Origin: Allodiplogaster sudhausi
Taxonomy: Eukaryota; Nematoda; Chromadorea; Rhabditida; Diplogasteridae
Reading direction: 5' to 3'
Assembly: GCA_945643635.1 (NCBI GenBank)
Contig: CALZFC010000042.1
Span: 1,791,001-1,855,000 of the forward strand
DNA length: 64,000 nucleotides
The notes beneath the pieces are model-generated. The model saw nothing but the letters and a program-made list of their open reading frames with translations, had not been told where the DNA came from and made no database searches. Shown piece by piece: positions 12,074 to 24,000 of the stretch. Position numbers and translations under genes: made by a program. Positions within the stretch are counted from its first letter, which is position 1; each line of letters starts with the position of its first letter.

Positions 12074-15000
12074 GGGAAGAAGACAAGAATGGAGGACAAG
12101 AGAATCAAAGAGGAAGAAAGAGGACAGAGGAAAAAAATGAGATAAGGAAATAAGTGTAAAAATAGAATGTACCAGGTAGAGTGTAGGCGCAGGCCGGCCA
12201 TTCTCGTCCATCGCGTTCAGATTTGCGTGCAGAACCTTAACAATTGTCGATTATAGTTAGAAAAAGGCTTAAAACATTTCGCCATAGCTGAGATGACGTG
12301 GTTGACAAGAGTTCGACGTATCAAAATCACGTTCTGGGTACCCGGACTGATCGAAGCGGAAAACACCTGGAAACTGCTGTTCTTTGCCATGCTGCTGATT
12401 GTTGAGAGGTGGAAAGAGGCATTCTGAAAGAAATTGACGTAATATAAGAGTATACAGAAAAAAAGAAGAATAATTTTATGATGTACTTTTTGAATGAAAT
12501 TGATATTGAACTAAATGAACCATATAGTGAAGAGTGTATCGCAGCTCATTGCAGTCTCTTCTGCACTCCATCGGGGCGAGGTCTTTTGGCTGCACGGAGA
12601 CGCCATCCGTCGTGATGTGGATGTAGTGCGTCACTCTGCCATTCACTTCCATCATATCAAAAGAACACTTCTCGTTCGTTCTTTGCTCTGGCCATTAACG
12701 GTGGGGAAAAGAACTGAAAGAACTGACTTGCCAATGACGTATTCATAATTTCGATTGTGGAGGGTACAAATGACCATTGAGTGCACTGGCGAAGCACGAA
12801 TCCATCGCCAGTTCAACTACAACAATTGAAGGGAGAGGGAGACGGATTGAGTGGAAATCATAATTCACACAAAAGTAAACACTAATTAAATTTCCTCCAA
12901 TTATAAAAAAAAAACAAATTCCATACAATGTCATTTCAATTATATCGTGATAACCACCAAACCAACGATCAAAATAAAAGAGGAAAAAAGAGATGAAACC
13001 TGAGGGTCGTTGCAGGCGATAGTGTGCTCTTTGAGAACGGAAACCGTTTGCTTCACCAGCCAGTAATGAGAAGCTGCCTGTAAGCACTTTTCCAGCTAAG
13101 TTTTCGAAGTATCAAGAAAAAATTTAATTCAAATTGCCGCATTTTACTTTGCAAAGAAAATAATCGGCTCGAGCATCAGTTGCATAAGGTATAAAAAGTA
13201 ACAGAACCTTAGTCATCCGGTTGAGGATTCCTTTGGGAACAGTGTAGCGAGCCTCGATCTAAGGTTGGATATTAAATTAATAGACTCATGTCTTAAATTA
13301 AAGAGCATCGGCCAGATAATTAATGAGGGGAAAGCTCCTTAAAGAAGATGAACCTCATCTTGAGTGAAAGCGAGAGGACCCCGAGAGTCGAGACTTTCAG
13401 GAAGACGAGTCAAGGGAAGATCAACGAAGCTCTGCGGTCGAATCGGCCGAGTGCACTCCTTAAGAAGATATGCAAATATGTTTATAACAATATTAAGGGG
13501 AAATCGATTTGGAGAGGATCATCCCAAAGGCTTTCAAATTTTTCACGCGTTTTTCCTCAATGATTCGCTCAAAATTGCTTTAGAAAGTATAAATTACAAA
13601 AAAATAGCATCCTAGTTGTGTTATTTGAGCGTCAACAGTACTTCTAATAAGGAGAATAGGTAAGTAAAGAAGCCAAACCCGACCATGGCCAGATGGCACT
13701 CTCGAAGGAGGCGCGTGAGGTAGGCATCTCCGTCATCTGGCACAGATGTGGCCTATCAAAGAGGCACTGCCTTACTCACAGGAAAGTCTATGAAATACTA
13801 AAATCAACTTTTTGACAGTAAACAGTGAATATCGTTAAGCTATCGAAATGAAGCTTTAACTCTAGCAAAGGAGAGGGAAACTTGCAAAGAACTGAGATGT
13901 ACCGTGAATGGAAATGACTTGAGCTCGAATCTCAGGAGGAGGCTGTCGAAGAGAGAGACGAGGACAACACTGTCTCCCACCACTGCCAACCGCCTTGTCA
14001 ACTGCACTGCGTCCGTTGAGAGCTGAAAAGAAAGATTATTACCTTCATTTCATCGCAAGTTGCATTGTTATACTAATTTTGTTTAAACAATTACGACTAA
14101 ACCATAAGGAAGCCTCTTTGAGTCAGTGCAGCTGCTCTCTTATTCTGATTACGGTATATGGAATTGAGATACGGTGGACTTACCATGTTGAAGATGTCTC
14201 GGCAGATGAAAGTCTCCTGTGCATACTGAAGGGCCTTTTCCCATGGCAGCTTCTCCGCTTCTTTTCGGTCAACCTGAAATTGCAAATAAGATAAGATTTT
14301 CATGAACAAAGACAGGCTTTCTTTAACCTATTTTATTGATAAAAAAAATAAACGCAACACTAAAAACCTCCATGAAGGCAAATGCTTCGTCATCTCGGCA
14401 ACCGAATAGATTCTTCGTTGATTCGTCATCTTAAATGTCTAACTGATTTCTTCATGCACTTTGTCGGCAAGTGCCGAGTATAGGAAGTTCTTTTCCCCCA
14501 TCCTACTAATGAATCATTCCTCCGCTTCATCTATTTTTGGTAAAGGAAAAGAACTCTAGATGAGTTGTTTTTCACCCTTCTCTTCTGCCAGACATATGAA
14601 AAGGTCTATATGAATCACCATCTCCTCCTCTTTCCTTGATATTGTGATAGAAGACAGAATGTCTGGAATGCTTTCTATCATGCTTTAAAAGGAGAAGTCA
14701 AGCACTTATTATTCATTTTTCTCTCTTCATTTTGATTTTATGTTTGAGATGAACGGTTTAATTACCCAAGTTTGAGGGACAATAAAGGATACCTGTCTTC
14801 TTGCTCGCAACAACTGGTGCGTCGGCACGCGTGAATTCTGGAGCGCCAAGTCAGAGACACAGCTGTTCCAGCAATGTCAAAAACAATCTTGTCCAACGTG
14901 GACTCGCTGCTGCAAAAACTCAAAAAGAAACTCAACGATGCAGAGGCAATCGACTTCGACAACGATTCAATCAGTCAGTCAGAGATCGACTCTCTCGCAA

Positions 15001-18000
15001 AGGTAACAACTTCTTCACTCGCTTCGATACAAGTTCTACGTGAACAGCTCTTGTCAGCAATGACATCTTGGGATGAATTTATTGACCGTCTCTCAAAAGA
15101 TCAACAAGTCATTCAAAACGATGCAAAAGCCAAGAAAGAAGCAGGTGATGACGGCGTCACAGCAATTCTAGACAGGGCACTAGAGACGATGCAGCTCCTC
15201 AAAACCAACGAGCGTACTCTACTCTCATCCGCCAAACAAATCCAAAGTCAAGGCTCGGTAGCCAGCTTAAGTGACAATGCTTCCGGCGAACAAGCAACAC
15301 AAGGCAATCAAGCAACTGCTCCTCCCCGGTCAGTCTTTGCAAGGCATTATCACACGGACCATAATCAAGACTCGCGCATCCCCCGTCTCCCACTATTGCA
15401 AATCCCCCAATTCGATGGAAACATGAATGACTGGAGGAGCTTCATACAGCTTTTCCGTTCAACCATCGACTCGCAACCGATACCCGAGATTGAAAAGCTG
15501 AGATATCTCATGTCAGCGATTACGGGTCCAGCGAAAGACGTCATTGCGGGATATTCTGTCGTGAACGGTGCATACTCTGATGTGTTGGCAACACTTGAAG
15601 AGGAATTTGGCGACATGACAGTCAACCGGACACGATTACACGCATTGATCCGCAGAGTCAAGAAACCGGACGAATCAATTTCGGGAGCAAGAGTCGTCAT
15701 TCGCGAGCTTACGAAGCTATGCCGTCAACTCACGGAGACAGGAGCGGACATCGAACATGAGCAGATGGTCTTAACAATTCAAGAACGCCTCCCTTCCTGG
15801 CTGCTGACTGCGTGCATCCGAGAGAAAAGGAGAGCAGCTGTGAGGAATGAAGAATGGACCGTGATGGGAATGCTCAGCTTTTGCCTCGAAGAAGTTCGGG
15901 ATAGACGAGCTGTCACAGAGATAGAGGATCAGTTGAGAGTGAAAGTGTCCGTTGCTGCTATCCCTCAAACGAAGGAATGGAAACCAGGATCGTACTCGAA
16001 AGCCAAACAGACTGAATGGAAAAGAATATGCCGGCTGTGCGAATCCGAAGATCATCATGCAGCTTCTTGCAACAAATTCCGAACGATGAGAGAACGGAAG
16101 GAGCAAGCCAAAGCCAAGAAGCTATGTCTACGCTGCTTAAGCAACAGACATTCGTCGGACAAATGCACGAGCAGATTCCGATGCCTCAACTGTGGAGATC
16201 AACTCCACCACACCAGCCTCTGCATCTCAAGCAAGGCAAACCAACCAAGAAGTTCCGCGTGGCAGGCCCCCTCACGAACAACGACAGCATGCGCCGCTGA
16301 AACGGAGAAGGATGTGGTCCTTCTGACAACACCAGTCACTCTGATCAACCTCGAAACTGGAGAGGAACATGAAGCAACTGCATTCCTTGACTCTGGCAGC
16401 CAAGGAAGCTTCATCTCAGATGACTTGGCAGGAACTCTTCAACTGCAGCCGAAACGGACAACCATCCTGAAGATGACTACCTTGAATAGAGGATAATCGA
16501 GAGCAAGGTCTTCTCGATTGGCCTTCGGCAAGAAGACGGCTCTATTCTTGAGATGACCGTCAAGAGCACTCCGACAATCGTTGGAGCAGTGCGCGCAATC
16601 ACGGAGCAACAGTTCCAACAGCAGCAACCTAAAGGAGTGTACACGAAGCCAATTCTCCTAATCGGATCAGATTACTTCTGGTCGATCATTCGTCACAAAG
16701 ACAAAACCCTCCCTTCCGGCTTGTCTTTGATCGACACAACTCTTGGACAGATCGCAACTGGATCCGCAGTAGTTGCAGCAGCGTTCCAAGATGATGCAAT
16801 CACCATTGCCATCGCGAAAGAAGACAAGGTGAAAGAAGAAATTCTCAAGGCCATGCATTCTCTAGATTGTCTGGGCATCACAGACAGCCCTTTCGAAAAG
16901 GACGACGAAACCGCTGTGAAGCTGTTCGAAGACAGCGTGACAATCTCGACTGAGCCCGGAGAAGAAGGCCGTATCTATGTTGGATGGCCGTGGAAGGAGA
17001 AGCGCCCGAATCTCCCAACAAATCGAGGAATATGCTTCGGAAGGCTCAAATCTACCGTGAAGAACCTCACTGAGCAAGCACGCCTCGAGATGTATGACGA
17101 AGTCATCAAAGAACAACTCCGCTCCGACGTCATTGAGGAGGTGCCCAAGGAACCTCCTTCTGACGGACGACCCATTCACTACTTGCCACACCACGGAGTG
17201 TACAATCCAGCCAAGAAGACAACCAAGCTTCGGATTGTCTATGATGCTTCATGTGGACCAAAGGGAAGATCACTGAACGACATGATCTATTCCGGCCCCA
17301 AGATGATTTCCAATCTCGTTGGAATGCTCCTAAGAATGCGCTGCCACCAGTTCATCATCACAGCAGACATCAAGAAGGCCTTCCTGCAGCTCGGTCTGAT
17401 CGAAAGGGATCGAGATGCCACTCGCTTTCTCTGGCTCCGTAACCCACTCGAGTGCGTCACTGAAGAAAACATAGTCGAGTACCGCTTCAAGCGGGTCCTC
17501 TTTGGCGTCATCGCCTCGCCCTTTTTGTTAGCAGCGTCCGTCGATCATCACCTGAGCAAACAGAACTGCCAACTCGCAGAAGAACTCAAGAACAGCATTT
17601 ATGCTGACAACTTCATGATGTGTGCAGACAGTGAGGAGGAAGCAAGACGGAAATGCATCGAGGCGAAGGAACTGCTAGCTTCAGCACAAATGACATTGCG
17701 CGAATTCACAAGCAATAATGCTGCAATCCACGAAGAATTCGCAGACGAGCCGGCAGAAAAAATAACGAAGTTCTTAGGTCTCATATGGAACACTGAAAAG
17801 GATGTTCTCTCGATCAAGACCGGCCAAAAGAGAGGTGAAGTACAGACGAAAACGACAGTGAGCGCTGAACTTGCTGCCGGTTTCGACCCGCTAGGCCTCA
17901 TCAGTCCTGCAGTCCTTCCTGCTCGACTATTCTTACAGAAGATCAGCAAAAAATACGACTGGAAAACAGCACTGGACGGCGAAGACCAACTTGAATGGCA

Positions 18001-21000
18001 ACAGATCTCAGGAGAACTCCTGGAACGCCAGATGTCCATCAAAAGGCAAGTAATCGCCAACAGCTCCACAGAACTTCACTCCTTCTGCGATGCCAGTGGT
18101 AATGGAATTGGAGTAGTAGTTTATCTCCGAACTACGACAGAAGGTGGAATTCACGTGATGCCTGTGCTTGCAAAATCCAGAGTTGTCCCATCCTCAGAAA
18201 AAGACAAGGAAGAGAAGGTCACGATTCCCCGTTTGGAACTAACGGCAGCACAGATTGGAGCCAAACTTCTATCCTTCACAAAAAAGGAGCTCAGAATCCA
18301 GCCGAAGCGAACGATCCTTTGGACAGACAGCCGATGTGTGCTCGCGTGGCTGAAGAACGAAAAGCTGGAAAAGCTGCCTCGTTACGTCGGAAACCGAGTG
18401 AACTCAATTCTAGAAGAGAAAATCGAGCAAATGAGATTCGTGCCGACCAAAGAAAATCCCGCAGACATCGCATCTCGAGGAGTCCCTTTCGACGAGCTCC
18501 AGACATCTCAACTCTGGTGGAATGGACCAAGATGGCTCACAATGGAGGAATCCGAATGGCCAGAAGCACCTCCTGTCAATGGATCAACCAGAATAATGAA
18601 GAGATCCATCTCCAGACAGCTGCCGTCACATCGAGCACCTCCAAACTGAAGCTGTCGCCTATCTCAATCAACACGGAAAGGTTCAGCAACCTCAGCAGGC
18701 TCCTCAATGCCACTTCTCAAGTCATCCGCTTCGCAGCTCTCATGATGAAGACTATTAACAAGTCTCCCCAGACAAGATGGCTTCAAGTCGCGACAACCTC
18801 AGCAACTCCGAGTGCTGATGAGCGAAACAACGCTCTTCGCCTCCTTCTCATGCAATGCGCTTACGATCATCCTCCAGACAAAGATTTGAAAACGAATCTA
18901 GACCTTCAAGAGAAAGATGGAATCTGGACGTGCCAAGGTCGCCTCGGCAATTGCGAACTGCCAGCGAGAACACGCCACCCGTGGTTTGTTAACGCGAAGT
19001 CACCCTTGGCGCGAGTCCTCATTCTCGACGCACACGTGCGCAGTGCACACAGCAACTCCGCAAATACGGTCGCAACTCTCCGACAGAACTTCTGGATCAA
19101 CCGAGCAAAGCAGTTGACGGCGAGCGTGATCAGCTCATGCAATAGCTGTCGAAAGCGAAAGGCGACCCCTTTTGCTGCTCCACAGATGGCTCCACTGCCT
19201 CCGGAAAGAGTCATCCGTTCGCCCGCTTTCTCCTCCACTGGACTCGACTACTTCGGCCCTCTCTCAACCATCAGAAATGGTCAACCACTATCGCAATGGG
19301 TGGCACTCTTCACGTGCACCGCGACTCGTGCAATTCACCTGGAAGTAGTCAATGATCTGTCTGCAGCAAGTGCCATCAACGCAATCAAGCGATTCATCGC
19401 AAGACGAGGGAAACCTGTGAAGATCATCACGGACAATGCCACCTGCTTCACACTCGCCCAGAAAGCGTGCGCTGAGGCCATCGGAGACCTGAAATGGCAA
19501 TTCATTCCTCCGAGATCGCCTTGGCAGGGTGAGTTCTATGAGAGGATGGTGAAGGAAGTGAAAGTATGCCTCCGCTCCACAGCCGGCAAGAAGAAGATCG
19601 AAGCAGATGAACTCCAAACTCTGATGGCAGGAATTGAAGCCATTCTCAACAATCGCCCACTCATTCAAACGGGTGACGACGATGAAGTCCTTCGCCCACA
19701 AGATCTTCTGCAGCCTCTGGTGAACACGACGCTGCACTCCTTCGAATTCGATGTCTACGACGAGGACCAACCGAAACACAAACTACTAGAAGCATGGGAA
19801 GCGACGAATGAACTACTCGAAAAGTTCTGGGACATCTGGACCCGGCATTATATCCCTGCATTGCGAGAACGGCATCAACAATTCATGAAGCAGAATCGTA
19901 GTCGAACCAACAGAGCTCCAACGATTGGCGAAGTCGTGATAGTCGTCGATGAACTCAAGAAGAGAGACGACTGGCCACTCGGAAGAATCGTCAAACTACA
20001 CGAAGGAACAGACGGAAACATCCGCACAGCTACAGTGAGAATGAAAAACGAGCGTGAGTTGAAGCGAAGCGTCACGCATCTTCTCGCACTTGAAGGAGAA
20101 GGAGATACGCTGCCAGCAGAAGTTACAGAAGAGGCAACCGATACGACAGTTGATGCCGCCGATGCAGTTGACAAAAGGGCACAAGAAAAGAATCAACCAG
20201 AAGGTACGAGCAAGAACACGACTCAACGACGCTATAACCTCAGGTCAATCGCGAAACAAGCTGTGGCGAGTATGTTTCTCATCCTGATCTTTGGAAACGG
20301 GACACTCGCTAGCCGATGCCCTAACGACAAGGCACCACTCGGATCACAACTCTACTTCTTGGAAGAGTGCCAGGAGTACGGTGTCGCTGCCTTCAAGAAG
20401 CCCGACGGCTCACTCTGTCACTTGTCCCGAGAATGTCCTGGAAACGCCCTGCGTAGCGAATCTGGAGACCTCTGTGGCCCTCAATGCAGTTGTGAAGAAT
20501 GGGCAAGTGGATGCTCTCACTACCAAGGCATGTTCACACACAACTCATCCAGCAAGAATGAGAAAACCAAAGCAATCCTCGCAGATATGAAGCCAATCTA
20601 CTGCTCTTGGCACCCGAATCCAAATTGCAGCAAGGATGAACTTCAAATTGACGTCTCTCAAGTTATGTTATTCGATAACTCATATTACCCTCTGAAGGAG
20701 ATAAACATCAAGTTTACCGAGATCGATCGAGCACACTGCAAGGGACAAGGAGCCAAGACTGGAACATCCGAATACTGCACATATATTTAATTGCACAGAG
20801 AACGGAACTGCTTTCTGTTTCCTCCCGAAACAGCCGATAGCTCTTCTCGTCACCAAACAAGGAAATATCGCAATAAAGCAGTGGGGCTCAGTGTCAAGAA
20901 CAGTCTACGGCTTCAAGAAGGAGAAAGAAGAGTGTACCACATGCTCAATCTCCTGCTCAAACGAAGGAATTTCTACAACCAGTGATGGTGCTCGACTGAT

Positions 21001-24000
21001 AGCCGTACAAATGGAGAAGTACTCGACAATGGTCGAGCATCCCACGCAGCAGCAAGAAGTGCGCTTCCCGCATTCAGTGATTGCTATTCCGTACAACGTG
21101 AACGTGAAGATGCACAAAGGCAGCACTGTTGTCTTTGACAAGGACATTCACTGTGAAGCCAGAAACGTCTGCGAAAACATTACATGCACACTCTGCTGGG
21201 AAGCCATCATCCACCTCCAATGCTATCCGAAATGGATGATCGCCCTACTCATGGCCGCCGCATACATCCTCCTATCACTAGCCGTCATGCTTCTGAGTGC
21301 CAGCTGCTGCATTTGTAAAGCGCTTAAAGGAGGCGCCAACTCTGCCCGCCTAGCCAGCAGAAGCATCATCACAGTCGGGAGGGCCGTCGCGAGCTGCATC
21401 GGAAAATGCATCCCGAAAAGGAAACGCCATAAGGAATCTCGAATCCGTCTTGTCAGCCTCAAGAAGCGGAAAGAAGCAGTCCCGCTATTAGCTCTAGCTG
21501 TGATTCTATCAATCTTTACTCCAGCTTCAGCGTGCGACCAAACAATCATCATCACCACCACCGAGGACTTATGTCAAATCCAAGACGACAAGACAGTGAT
21601 TTGCACATCCATTGATGTAGCCAACTTCAACGGAGCTGCAACAGGTGCAATAACCTGTCTCCAATTGAAGGACGAAAATGGCAATCCTGCAGCCTCAATC
21701 CAAATACAAGTCGAACAGATCGCTAACAAATGCGAAAAGCAGTTCAAATTCGCCACAAGAGCCTTCGAGATCGAGACAACATCAGTGAAGAGGTGCGCTG
21801 GATCTGGAAGCTGTCAAGAAAATCGGTGTGCTATTATGGCAACCGATGAGGAGATAACTGAACTCGGGTATGTGAACAGATTCCCTGGAGTTTCTGGTTG
21901 TCTTGGAAGTTCCGGGTGTCTCTGGAACGGCTGCCTTTCTTGCAACAGCCATGCACCTTCTTCAAATCAGTAGGAAGACCAACAGATAATCGACTATATG
22001 AAGTCTTTCACTGCTCCAGCTACCTGCCTGTTGTGACAATCAGCATCGAATTTTCAACCAACAACGAAACAGAGAAGCAGTTCTTCAAAATGTCACCAGG
22101 AATGCTGACAACCATGAAAGGAATCCAAGTGAAGATGAACTACGTCATCGAACCGCCCATGCCAGCCTTGACGACAGCCTTCGTATCAGACGGAGAAGTG
22201 GTGGCTCTACTGACGCCTGAGGAAGAAAGAGAAGCATCAGTCTTCCCATGTAACTCCTCAGATCTCAGCCAGTGCCAATTCAGAAAGGAAGCTTGTCAGT
22301 GCAAATTAGCTGACGACGACTTAGTCAAGTGTGCCTGCGCAAATGGACAAGCAACCGCAAATGCAATTCGAAGATGCACACTTCCACAACAGCAAGGATC
22401 AGTCTGGTTTGAAGCAGAAGGCAGTTCGGTATCTGTGGCACAGCCGACCGCAGTTGCCGATCTTTCGATTAGAATCCAGGACTTGGAGCTCGCTCAGATC
22501 GAGTCGCATGCGAAATGCATGATGGATTCAACAAGCATGGTCGGCTGTCATAGCTGTAGTGCTGGGGCAACGCTGACGTACGTCTGCAGCTCTACTCCCC
22601 ATGCAGCTATCGGCCCCTGAACTGCGATTCAGGAAAAGCCCTCTCTGTGAAGTGCACGCCCGAAGCCATTACGAGGATGACTACCTTCACTTCTTCCACC
22701 TCTGAAGTTCAAGAGAACTGCCAACTAAGCTGTGGTCGCGAACAAATCAAAGTCAAGATCAATGGAACTCTCAAGACAATCTTCGATGTAAGCGAACAAA
22801 AAAGCAACACTCAGTTCGGCCTCATCATTGCCACTCGAAATAATATATTGGCCCTCCTTGCAGATCATATGTCCTATTCTATTGTTCTAATAGCATCATC
22901 AATCACGGTCATTTTCTTCGTCTGCAAAATCTGTATGTAGCTTTCTTTCTTCGCTAATTTCCTCTCCCCCAGTGTCGGCAAGTGCCGAGTATAGGAAGTT
23001 CTTTTCCCCCATCCTACTAATGAATCATTCCTCCGCTTCATCTATTTTTGGTAAAGGAAAAGAATTCTAGATGAGTTGTTTTTCACCCTTCTCTTCTGCC
23101 AGACATATGAAAAGGTCTATATGAATCACCATCTCCTCCTCTTTCCTTGATATTGTGATAGAAGACAGCATGTCTGGAATGCTTTCTATCATGCTTTAAA
23201 AGGAGAAGTCAAGCACTTATTATTCATTTTTCTCTCTTCATTTTGATTTTATGTTTGAGATGAACGGTTTAATTACCCAAGTTTGAGGGACAATAAAGGA
23301 TACCTGTCTTCTTGCTCGCAACACACTTACTCTATAAACGATTCGAGATTGAAAACAACTACCTTTAACAATCGTAACTGTAAGCGTTGTACGCTTCATG
23401 AGGTCCTTCGGAACGCTCACCTTGAAGAAAAATAAATAAAGTTAGAAACTAAGAGAAACTAAAGTATGAAAAAGTGCTGAAATAAATACGTGTGAAAAGT
23501 AAAAGGTAGAAATGACTGAAAACACAAACCGTCATGACGGACTTGTCAATATGGGAGCTCTTGTCCAGAATCTTCCGAGAGATGTCAAAGAGTCCGTGGC
23601 CGTCCTGTTTGTTGCCAACTGAAAAGATCGCATCAAATGCGAGGATATTGTTTAAATGGTAAAAGACCGAAAAGGAACAACGCTGAAAGCAATGAACAGA
23701 CAAATCTTATATCCCAGATCGCCAAAGATGTGATCGCCCTGCTTGCGAACTCTCCACAATTCTCGCATCTTCCGAAGTTCCCTAATAACAATCTTCATTG
23801 AAATCTGATATACAAAGTCCAAATCTTCATTAACCGAAGGACAGTTAAAACGTACTGGAAGAAGACGTCTCGCTGCATCTGAATTGTTCCATCGACAAGA
23901 GAATCAGAAGTGGAGAGAGAGTGGCCGGATGCTCCTCTGGTGGGAGAAGTCAAGCCAAGTCTCTGGTTCACTGCCACTTCCAGAGCACGCGCCGACTCGC

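What the first reader, a model, noticed from the sequence alone, without database searches (positions are those of the whole stretch)
14755..14776. Nematode SL1 spliced leader embedded in the LTR of a BEL/Pao element
Both LTRs contain all 22 nt of SL1 with no mismatch (14755-14776 and 23266-23287). What follows is GGAC then AATAAA, not the GT donor of an SL RNA gene, so the copy is exon-like. Its place, 58 nt before the LTR end and next to the primer site, is where the R region should begin. Inference: an ancestral genomic RNA was trans-spliced to SL1, copied by reverse transcription, and the leader became the permanent R start. The element's RNA would then carry a host-like 5' end whether or not it is trans-spliced, which could help translation and let SL1 at both RNA ends serve strand transfer.
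Basis: partly seen in the sequence, partly recalled or inferred. Interest (0 to 1): 0.93.

Follow-up and report, generated by a model that had tools for sequence, protein, structure and literature searches.

The report
Worm splice leader inside retroelement repeats
Several families of retrovirus-like BEL/Pao elements in this nematode genome carry the worm's complete 22-letter spliced leader inside their terminal repeats, most likely copied in from trans-spliced RNA, which could let an RNA whose front end has been replaced by the host still be copied back into DNA.

Summary
Both LTRs (14462-14812, 22973-23323) of an env-bearing BEL/Pao element carry SL1, 22 of 22. It is not one element's oddity. 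In the 352-Mb source genome, exact SL1 without a splice donor sits in LTRs of four U3 groups that a 75-nt alignment test does not link. Sampling by U3 alone, 80 of 96 rows lie next to exact SL1; the other 16, all read, keep an exact, changed or truncated SL1. A poly(A) signal adjoins SL1 in 22 of 26 LTR-like rows. Capture by reverse transcription of trans-spliced RNA is the best origin: edges are exon-exact, and a histone H1 fragment and LINE-like repeats also start with SL1. One correction: a TATA-like box lies 68-95 nt upstream of SL1 in 22 of 26 rows (0.85 expected), so primary transcripts should start about 40-65 nt before SL1. SL1 is the RNA 5' end only if the RNA is trans-spliced; then LTR-encoded SL1 restores the repeat needed for strand transfer. 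Two LTR groups show a one-letter-off echo of the SL1 tail, and one LTR family is a chimera jointed at SL1. No RNA data were available.

The parts
14462..14812 (+). 5' LTR, 351 nt, TGTCGG...GCAACA
   Evidence: LTR comparison and letters
22973..23323 (+). 3' LTR, 351 nt, 2 differences from the 5' LTR, none in SL1
14755..14776 (+). SL1, 22 of 22, in the 5' LTR
23266..23287 (+). SL1, 22 of 22, in the 3' LTR
14684..14690 (+). TATA-like TTTAAAA, 71 nt before SL1 (same at 23195-23201)
   Evidence: motif scan; function inferred
14713..14722 (+). initiator-like TCATTTTTCT; predicted primary RNA start at about 14715
   Evidence: sequence only; inferred
14715..14754 (+). T-rich outron-like stretch between the predicted RNA start and SL1 (56% T in the last 45 nt before SL1; whole U3 37%)
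   Evidence: inferred
14781..14786 (+). AATAAA poly(A) signal 4 nt after SL1 (same at 23292-23297)
14815..14826 (+). primer-binding site TGGTGCGTCGGC, 2 nt after the 5' LTR
   Evidence: assignment to a tRNA-Gly is recalled, not tested
14457..14461 (+). target-site duplication CACTT (second copy 23324-23328)
14874..16496 (+). gag-type ORF (DUF1759), 540 aa
16553..18649 (+). pol ORF with reverse transcriptase and Peptidase A17
18319..20790 (+). pol ORF with integrase zinc-binding domain, weak integrase core, DUF5641
20891..21973 (+). env-type ORF, Phlebovirus G1 and first part of G2
21898..22620 (+). env-type ORF, rest of Phlebovirus G2

Best explanation
The LTR SL1 is a captured trans-spliced leader that marks the 5' end of the trans-spliced form of the element's genomic RNA. 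Proposed cycle: RNA polymerase II starts about 40 nt upstream of SL1 from a TATA-type LTR promoter (inferred). The host's SL1 trans-splicing replaces the RNA's outron with SL1 (inferred). Reverse transcription from the primer site copies U5 and stops at SL1's first base, so strong-stop DNA ends in the complement of SL1. At first-strand transfer this DNA pairs with the LTR-encoded SL1 next to the poly(A) signal at the RNA's 3' end and is extended into U3. Without SL1 in the LTR, trans-splicing would remove part or all of the repeat that strand transfer needs. SL1 entered the LTR lineages when such cDNA was extended despite a mismatch (inferred), and later rounds could rewrite it from the host's SL RNA, much as the primer site is rewritten from a host tRNA. 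Shown: the sequence facts, breadth across families, exon-exact edges, TATA-like and poly(A) placement, one chimera jointed at SL1, and cDNA-type SL1 sequences elsewhere. Not shown: any RNA.
For: 1) Exact 22-nt copy with changing neighbours on both sides in four U3 groups that the test does not link: window/F2b/L108, F2/F4, F5, F6/L113. F1 and F2 gag are 47% identical in protein, yet SL1 is 22 of 22 in both. 2) U3-only sampling: 80 of 96 rows exact, and the other 16 all keep an SL1 copy. 3) SL1 lies 68-95 nt after a TATA-like box in 22 of 26 LTR-like rows, 0.85 expected in shuffles, leaving room for an outron; (A/G)ATAAA starts 0-9 nt after SL1 in 14 of 26, abuts it upstream in 6 and overlaps its last G in 2 (my reading). 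4) Echo of the SL1 tail: SL1 followed by TTTGAG exactly at 2 genome places, and with one change in the F5 and F2 LTR groups, as expected if a new SL1 was spliced at the internal AAG of an older SL1. 5) F2 LTR is a chimera whose 3' joint falls at SL1. 6) Host-cDNA control: a linker histone H1 piece starting at SL1.
Against: No RNA evidence at all. SL1's own end (TTTGAG) is a poor match to the nematode 3' splice-site consensus (recalled), so ongoing trans-splicing exactly there is uncertain. SL1 is lost or changed in older copies and, in 30 window-family LTRs, is not clearly more conserved than its surroundings (3 changed columns of 22). The F2 tail echo TTCGAG can also be read as a deletion in an F2b-type U5. 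The chimera joint at SL1 could be plain recombination, since SL1 is the only stretch seen to be shared there. The U3 groups may still be distantly related: F1, F2, F4 and F2b all hold ATGAATCAT, so one old capture followed by maintenance is possible. Nine A17 matches with open frames of 2,442-2,446 aa (such as C5:6512968) have no listed donor-less exact SL1 near them, so SL1 may not be needed by all BEL elements.
Confidence: 0.58

Rival explanations
1. Capture, then fossil: SL1 was copied in once per lineage or once in a common ancestor and now sits inside the R region of RNAs that start 40-65 nt upstream and are not trans-spliced; it is kept by chance, youth of the copies or a minor 5' UTR role.
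For: TATA spacing puts the primary start upstream of SL1. Older copies have changed or truncated SL1. SL1's end is a weak acceptor (recalled consensus).
Against: The 75 nt before SL1 no longer align between four U3 groups while SL1 is 22 of 22, too exact for neutral inheritance from one ancestor. The near-echo of the tail in F5 and F2 points to later re-splicing.
Confidence: 0.22
2. Promoter mimic: the SL1 exon acts as a promoter element, as recalled for Ascaris SL RNA genes, and fixes the RNA start at its first base.
For: Many dispersed SL1 copies occur in other repeats of this genome, some beside a splice donor. A dinoflagellate review proposes that relict leaders can act as promoters (PMC6050394, passages seen).
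Against: A TATA-like box 68-95 nt upstream predicts a start well before SL1. The base before SL1 varies (C, A, T) between LTR lineages, and I saw no SL RNA gene upstream sequence there by eye.
Confidence: 0.12
3. DNA-level copying: SL1 was pasted in from an SL RNA gene or SL1-bearing repeat by gene conversion or insertion.
For: SL RNA arrays and SL1-bearing foldback repeats are present in many copies. Two F5-type LTRs have SL1 followed by GTATGTA.
Against: DNA copying would not respect both exon edges in several lineages; the downstream bases are, by eye, not SL RNA intron sequence, also in the two GT cases.
Confidence: 0.06

Closest known systems
BEL/Pao LTR elements, Tas-type nematode lineage (PMC3118150, passages seen; Tas and Cer7 details recalled)
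   Same: DUF1759 gag, A17 peptidase, RT, integrase, paired LTRs, 5-nt target duplication, env-type gene
   Different: A host spliced leader inside the LTR; the terms SL1 and splic do not occur in the held main text of PMC3118150
Cer1, Ty3/Gypsy element of C. elegans (PMC3315495, passages seen)
   Same: Element RNA is SL1 trans-spliced in a nematode
   Different: There SL1 joins a spliced 2.4-kb mRNA; the passages say the 8-kb RNA was not trans-spliced at that site, and they describe no SL1 in the LTR
Relict spliced leaders in dinoflagellate retrogenes (PMC6050394, passages seen)
   Same: Leader copied into DNA through reverse transcription, sometimes in multiple copies
   Different: Host genes, not the R region of an LTR element; no role in strand transfer is described in the passages
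Echinococcus ta-TRIM LTRs that compete with the spliced leader for an acceptor (PMC4558846, passages seen)
   Same: LTR transcription meets SL trans-splicing
   Different: The LTR supplies a donor spliced in cis; no leader sequence in the LTR is described in the passages

Membership tests
BEL/Pao LTR retroelement | Pao peptidase A17 beside a reverse transcriptase | tested here: met
   PF05380 E 1.4e-39, PF00078 E 1.8e-9
BEL/Pao LTR retroelement | gag DUF1759 and integrase | tested here: met
   PF03564 E 1.1e-16; PF17921 E 1.3e-7; rve PF00665 E 1.7e-5 at 25.4 bits, below its cut-off of 32.6
BEL/Pao LTR retroelement | paired LTRs, target duplication, primer site | tested here: met
BEL/Pao LTR retroelement | placement in the Tas superfamily by a tree | not tested
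   only a protein search; named relatives include Sycon ciliatum (41%), Brenthis ino (38%), Onchocerca ochengi (38-44%), Loa loa (47%)
Relict spliced leader (captured by reverse transcription) | exact leader exon without the SL RNA donor | tested here: met
   two F5-type LTRs with GT are exceptions
Relict spliced leader (captured by reverse transcription) | host mRNAs copied with the leader in the same genome | tested here: met
   one histone H1 piece, PF00538 E 3.1e-12 over 35 of 74 profile positions
Relict spliced leader (captured by reverse transcription) | element RNA is or was trans-spliced | not testable with these tools
   no RNA data held
SL RNA gene | GT donor, Sm site and SL RNA fold after SL1 | tested here: not met
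   GGACAATAAA follows in the window; no Rfam match in the window at the gathering threshold; array units match RF00198 only at a laxer threshold

The most novel reading that the evidence does not exclude
These elements replicate through trans-spliced genomic RNA, and the leader in their LTRs is rewritten from the host's SL RNA in each cycle, as the primer site is from a host tRNA. SL1 is then a universal R shared by distant BEL families, and strand transfer through it lets families exchange U3 promoters, as the F2 chimera suggests.
Probability: 0.33. Interest if true: 0.93.

Novelty: new variant of a known kind. Interest (0 to 1): 0.82.

Why it matters
Trans-splicing should be harmful to a retroelement because it removes the front of the RNA and with it part or all of the repeat needed for strand transfer. 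An LTR that encodes the leader would solve this. If right, it is a retroelement whose terminal repeat is shared with the host's mRNA leader, and it makes a testable prediction for nematodes, flatworms, rotifers and other animals with spliced leaders. It also offers a route by which distant families swap promoters.

Tried and rejected
SL1 by chance: rejected (no match in shuffles; 0 in the reversed control). SL RNA gene in the window: rejected. SL1 as the primary RNA start: judged unlikely after the TATA spacing; the motif list was chosen after I had seen the sequences, so the shuffle expectation is somewhat flattering. Window-family LTRs as a conservation test: too young to tell. The stretch read for the family at C5:6512968 fell in an open, gag-like frame, so its LTR was not read. 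A pattern for SL1-GT followed by ATAAA within 30 nt gave 4 places, none at that family. The source species was not identified: one homology search with pol gave relatives at 47% identity or less, and one with a repeat-rich window ORF gave one weak hit; ten other window ORFs outside the element gave no Pfam family at E 0.01. In one search, 83 of 93 SL1+H places (the ten on contig C272 left out), all 21 and all 55 of the other two classes, and 119 of the 152 A17 matches reported were compared; by my count 48 of 119 have a donor-less exact SL1 on the same strand between -5.5 and +6.5 kb. SL1+GT places were not in that comparison. The chance estimate for the tail echo (2 of 23 LTR hexamers with at least 5 of 6 letters, P about 0.005) treats related LTRs as independent and is crude. 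Paper searches listed nothing on a spliced leader inside an LTR as far as their listings and the passages read show; I did not see the original Tas and Cer7 papers.

Full report
OBSERVATION. SL1 is present letter for letter at 14755-14776 and 23266-23287 and nowhere else in the window with up to 3 mismatches; 100 shuffles gave no match. The element is bounded by LTRs at 14462-14812 and 22973-23323 with 2 differences in 351 nt, has a CACTT target duplication, and its primer site TGGTGCGTCGGC starts 2 nt after the LTR. Pfam finds BEL/Pao gag, Pao peptidase, RT and an integrase zinc-binding domain (the integrase core scores below its cut-off), and a Phlebovirus G1/G2-type env. In the window env is spread over two overlapping frames and gag and pol over separate ones; copies with long open frames exist elsewhere in the genome.

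BREADTH. The window lies in a 351.8-Mb genome of 382 contigs. Exact SL1 occurs 1,821 times, with 0 in the reversed control: 93 with the next base not G, 21 with GA or GC, 55 with GG, and 1,652 with GT by subtraction. The GT class includes SL RNA arrays with a 460-nt unit whose copies match Rfam SL1 at 41 bits, below the gathering score of 75. I read the surroundings of 50 of the 93 (30 with 1.5-kb flanks; 20 in short stretches), 19 of the 21, and 29 of the 55 (loci L001-L030, L036, L037).

LTR FAMILIES. Names are mine. F1 is the window family. F2 has 12 pairs of SL1 8,653-8,654 nt apart with an A17 peptidase between, an LTR of about 486 nt, and a gag 47% identical to F1's. F4 shares the F2 U3 but has another U5 and primer site. 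F2b has the F2 leader and 3' internal end with another U3. F6 (L115) has an A17 match 3.9 kb downstream of its SL1. F5 is assigned to BEL only tentatively: only one 24-residue stretch of its gag-like frame aligns to F1's (E 0.006), Pfam gave no gag hit for it, no listed A17 match lies near its listed SL1s, but an L090 piece has an integrase zinc-binding domain. Shuffle-tested alignment of the 75 nt before SL1 links F1, F2b and L108; F2 and F4; five F5 rows (L062, L090, L109, L077, L094); and F6 with L113. No link above z 5 was found between these groups, and L093, L107 and L111 stayed unlinked. Against complete independence, F1, F2, F4 and F2b all hold the word ATGAATCAT in U3.

UNBIASED SAMPLE. 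Four searches used only the 100 nt upstream of SL1. Of 96 rows (95 distinct places), 80 lie next to an exact SL1 of the listed classes: 38 of 40, 5 of 7, 32 of 40 and 5 of 9. The other 16 were all read: 14, plus L021 and L025 from loci in hand. All keep SL1: one is exact but followed by GT (L142), two are truncated (L131, L134), and 13 have 1 to 3 changes. So within these lineages SL1 is general. The seeds all carried SL1, so lineages without it would not appear unless their U3 were similar, and two of the searches scored only 40 of 47 and 40 of 74 candidates.

A FAMILY WITHOUT IT? Eleven A17 matches at 112.7-113.1 bits, nine of them with open frames of 2,442-2,446 aa, have no listed donor-less exact SL1 near them. 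That they form one family is inferred from those figures. Their LTR was not read, so a changed SL1 or one followed by GT is not excluded.

ANATOMY. Of 26 LTR-like rows, 22 have a TATA-like motif 68-95 nt before SL1 against 0.85 expected in dinucleotide shuffles; with one row for each of eight lineages it is 8 of 8 against 0.26. L083, L085, L094 and L101 lack it. A 27th row, L074, is the histone copy and is not counted; L137 and L142 gave no row. The rows include several copies of one family, and for L107, L108, L111 and L113 no LTR pair was shown. The last 45 nt before SL1 are 56% T in F1 against 37% in its whole U3, and 38-53% T in eight other LTRs. In F1 an initiator-like TCATTT places the predicted start at about 14715, 31 nt after the first base of the TATA-like box and 40 nt before SL1. 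This is inference from sequence. (A/G)ATAAA starts 0-9 nt after SL1 in 14 of 26 rows, abuts SL1 upstream in 6, and in 2 more ATAAA follows SL1's last G directly; L103, L107, L111 and L141 have none so placed. SL1 is therefore placed where an RNA 5' end made by trans-splicing and a 3' end made by polyadenylation could overlap.

CHIMERA. The F2 LTR begins with about 26 nt matching F2b (96%). From position 25 of U3 on it matches F4 (94.8% over the 345 nt that the fetched F4 stretch covers; 91% over the last 100 nt). After SL1 its U5 and leader match F2b from the fifth base on (93.8% over 129 nt), as does its 3' internal end (95.7% over 953 nt), with no match to the fetched F4 pieces there. The downstream joint lies at SL1. 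This is what strand transfer through SL1 would give, but SL1 is also the only stretch seen to be shared there, so other recombination would do the same; a second switch near the U3 start is needed in any case.

ECHO OF THE TAIL. If a new leader were spliced at the AAG inside an older SL1, the result is SL1 followed by TTTGAG. The exact form is found at 2 places, one of them a LINE-like 5' end (L116). With one mismatch allowed anywhere there are 39 places in all: those 2, 32 with TTCGAG (the F2 form), 4 with TTTGCG (three F5, one foldback repeat, L078) and one with a change inside SL1. In F5, LTRs with SL1 joined directly to ATAAAG (L143, one change in SL1) and with SL1-TTTGCG-ATAAAG (L061) are related by just this step. 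For F2 a small deletion in an F2b-type U5 is an equal reading.

CONTROLS FOR CAPTURE. L074 has SL1 directly followed by a short leader and a linker-histone frame (PF00538, E 3.1e-12). A repeat family (L076, L084, L116, L119, L125, L126, L129) shares a body that follows SL1 while the upstream flanks differ, often with truncated tandem SL1 copies; calling it LINE-like is my reading of the ORF, as Pfam gave only a weak trimerisation motif below cut-off. So cDNA of trans-spliced RNA seems to reach this genome. In dinoflagellates such relict leaders are known (PMC6050394, passages).

AGAINST. In 30 window-family LTRs SL1 has 3 changed columns of 22, each in one copy; changes elsewhere are somewhat more frequent but the family is too young for a test. 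No RNA data exist here. SL1's 3' end is a weak splice acceptor by the recalled consensus. Cer1 of C. elegans is trans-spliced on a spliced mRNA and, by the passages read, not on its 8-kb RNA (PMC3315495), so trans-splicing of genomic RNA is not a given.

VERDICT. Confirmed observation; interpretation partly supported. Origin by capture of a trans-spliced leader: about 0.8. A present role in replication through trans-spliced RNA: about 0.58 as the best single account. Renewal of SL1 each cycle: about one in three.

Noticed in passing
L076, L084, L116, L119, L125, L126, L129: LINE-like repeats start at or near SL1 with differing upstream flanks and often truncated tandem SL1 copies, like relict leaders of dinoflagellates.
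   Followed up: partly
L074:1501-1800: Linker-histone H1 fragment whose first 22 nt are SL1, like a processed copy of a trans-spliced mRNA.
   Followed up: partly
L032:912-2076: Dispersed foldback repeat with 474-nt arms 98% complementary and SL1-GTAGCGAAATAG in its 217-nt centre; no Rfam match there.
   Followed up: partly
L141, L142: Two F5-type LTRs have SL1 (exact in L142, one base off at its start in L141) followed by GTATGTA, a good splice donor, so an LTR-encoded SL1 exon could be spliced in cis.
   Followed up: no
L068, L099, L121, L144-L147: F2 appears to have taken its U3 promoter from an F4-type LTR while keeping an F2b interior.
   Followed up: yes
window 22953-22972: The stretch before the 3' LTR is pyrimidine-rich (CCTCTCCCCCAG), not the purine tract expected for plus-strand priming.
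   Followed up: no
L071:1560-2953: An F2 copy lies beside nine tRNA-Cys genes in tandem.
   Followed up: no
window 20891-22620: Env-type gene resembles Phlebovirus G1/G2, as recalled for Cer7-type elements.
   Followed up: no
F1, F2, F4 and F2b U3 regions: All four hold the word ATGAATCAT (twice in F2 and F4), perhaps a shared promoter motif or a trace of common descent.
   Followed up: no
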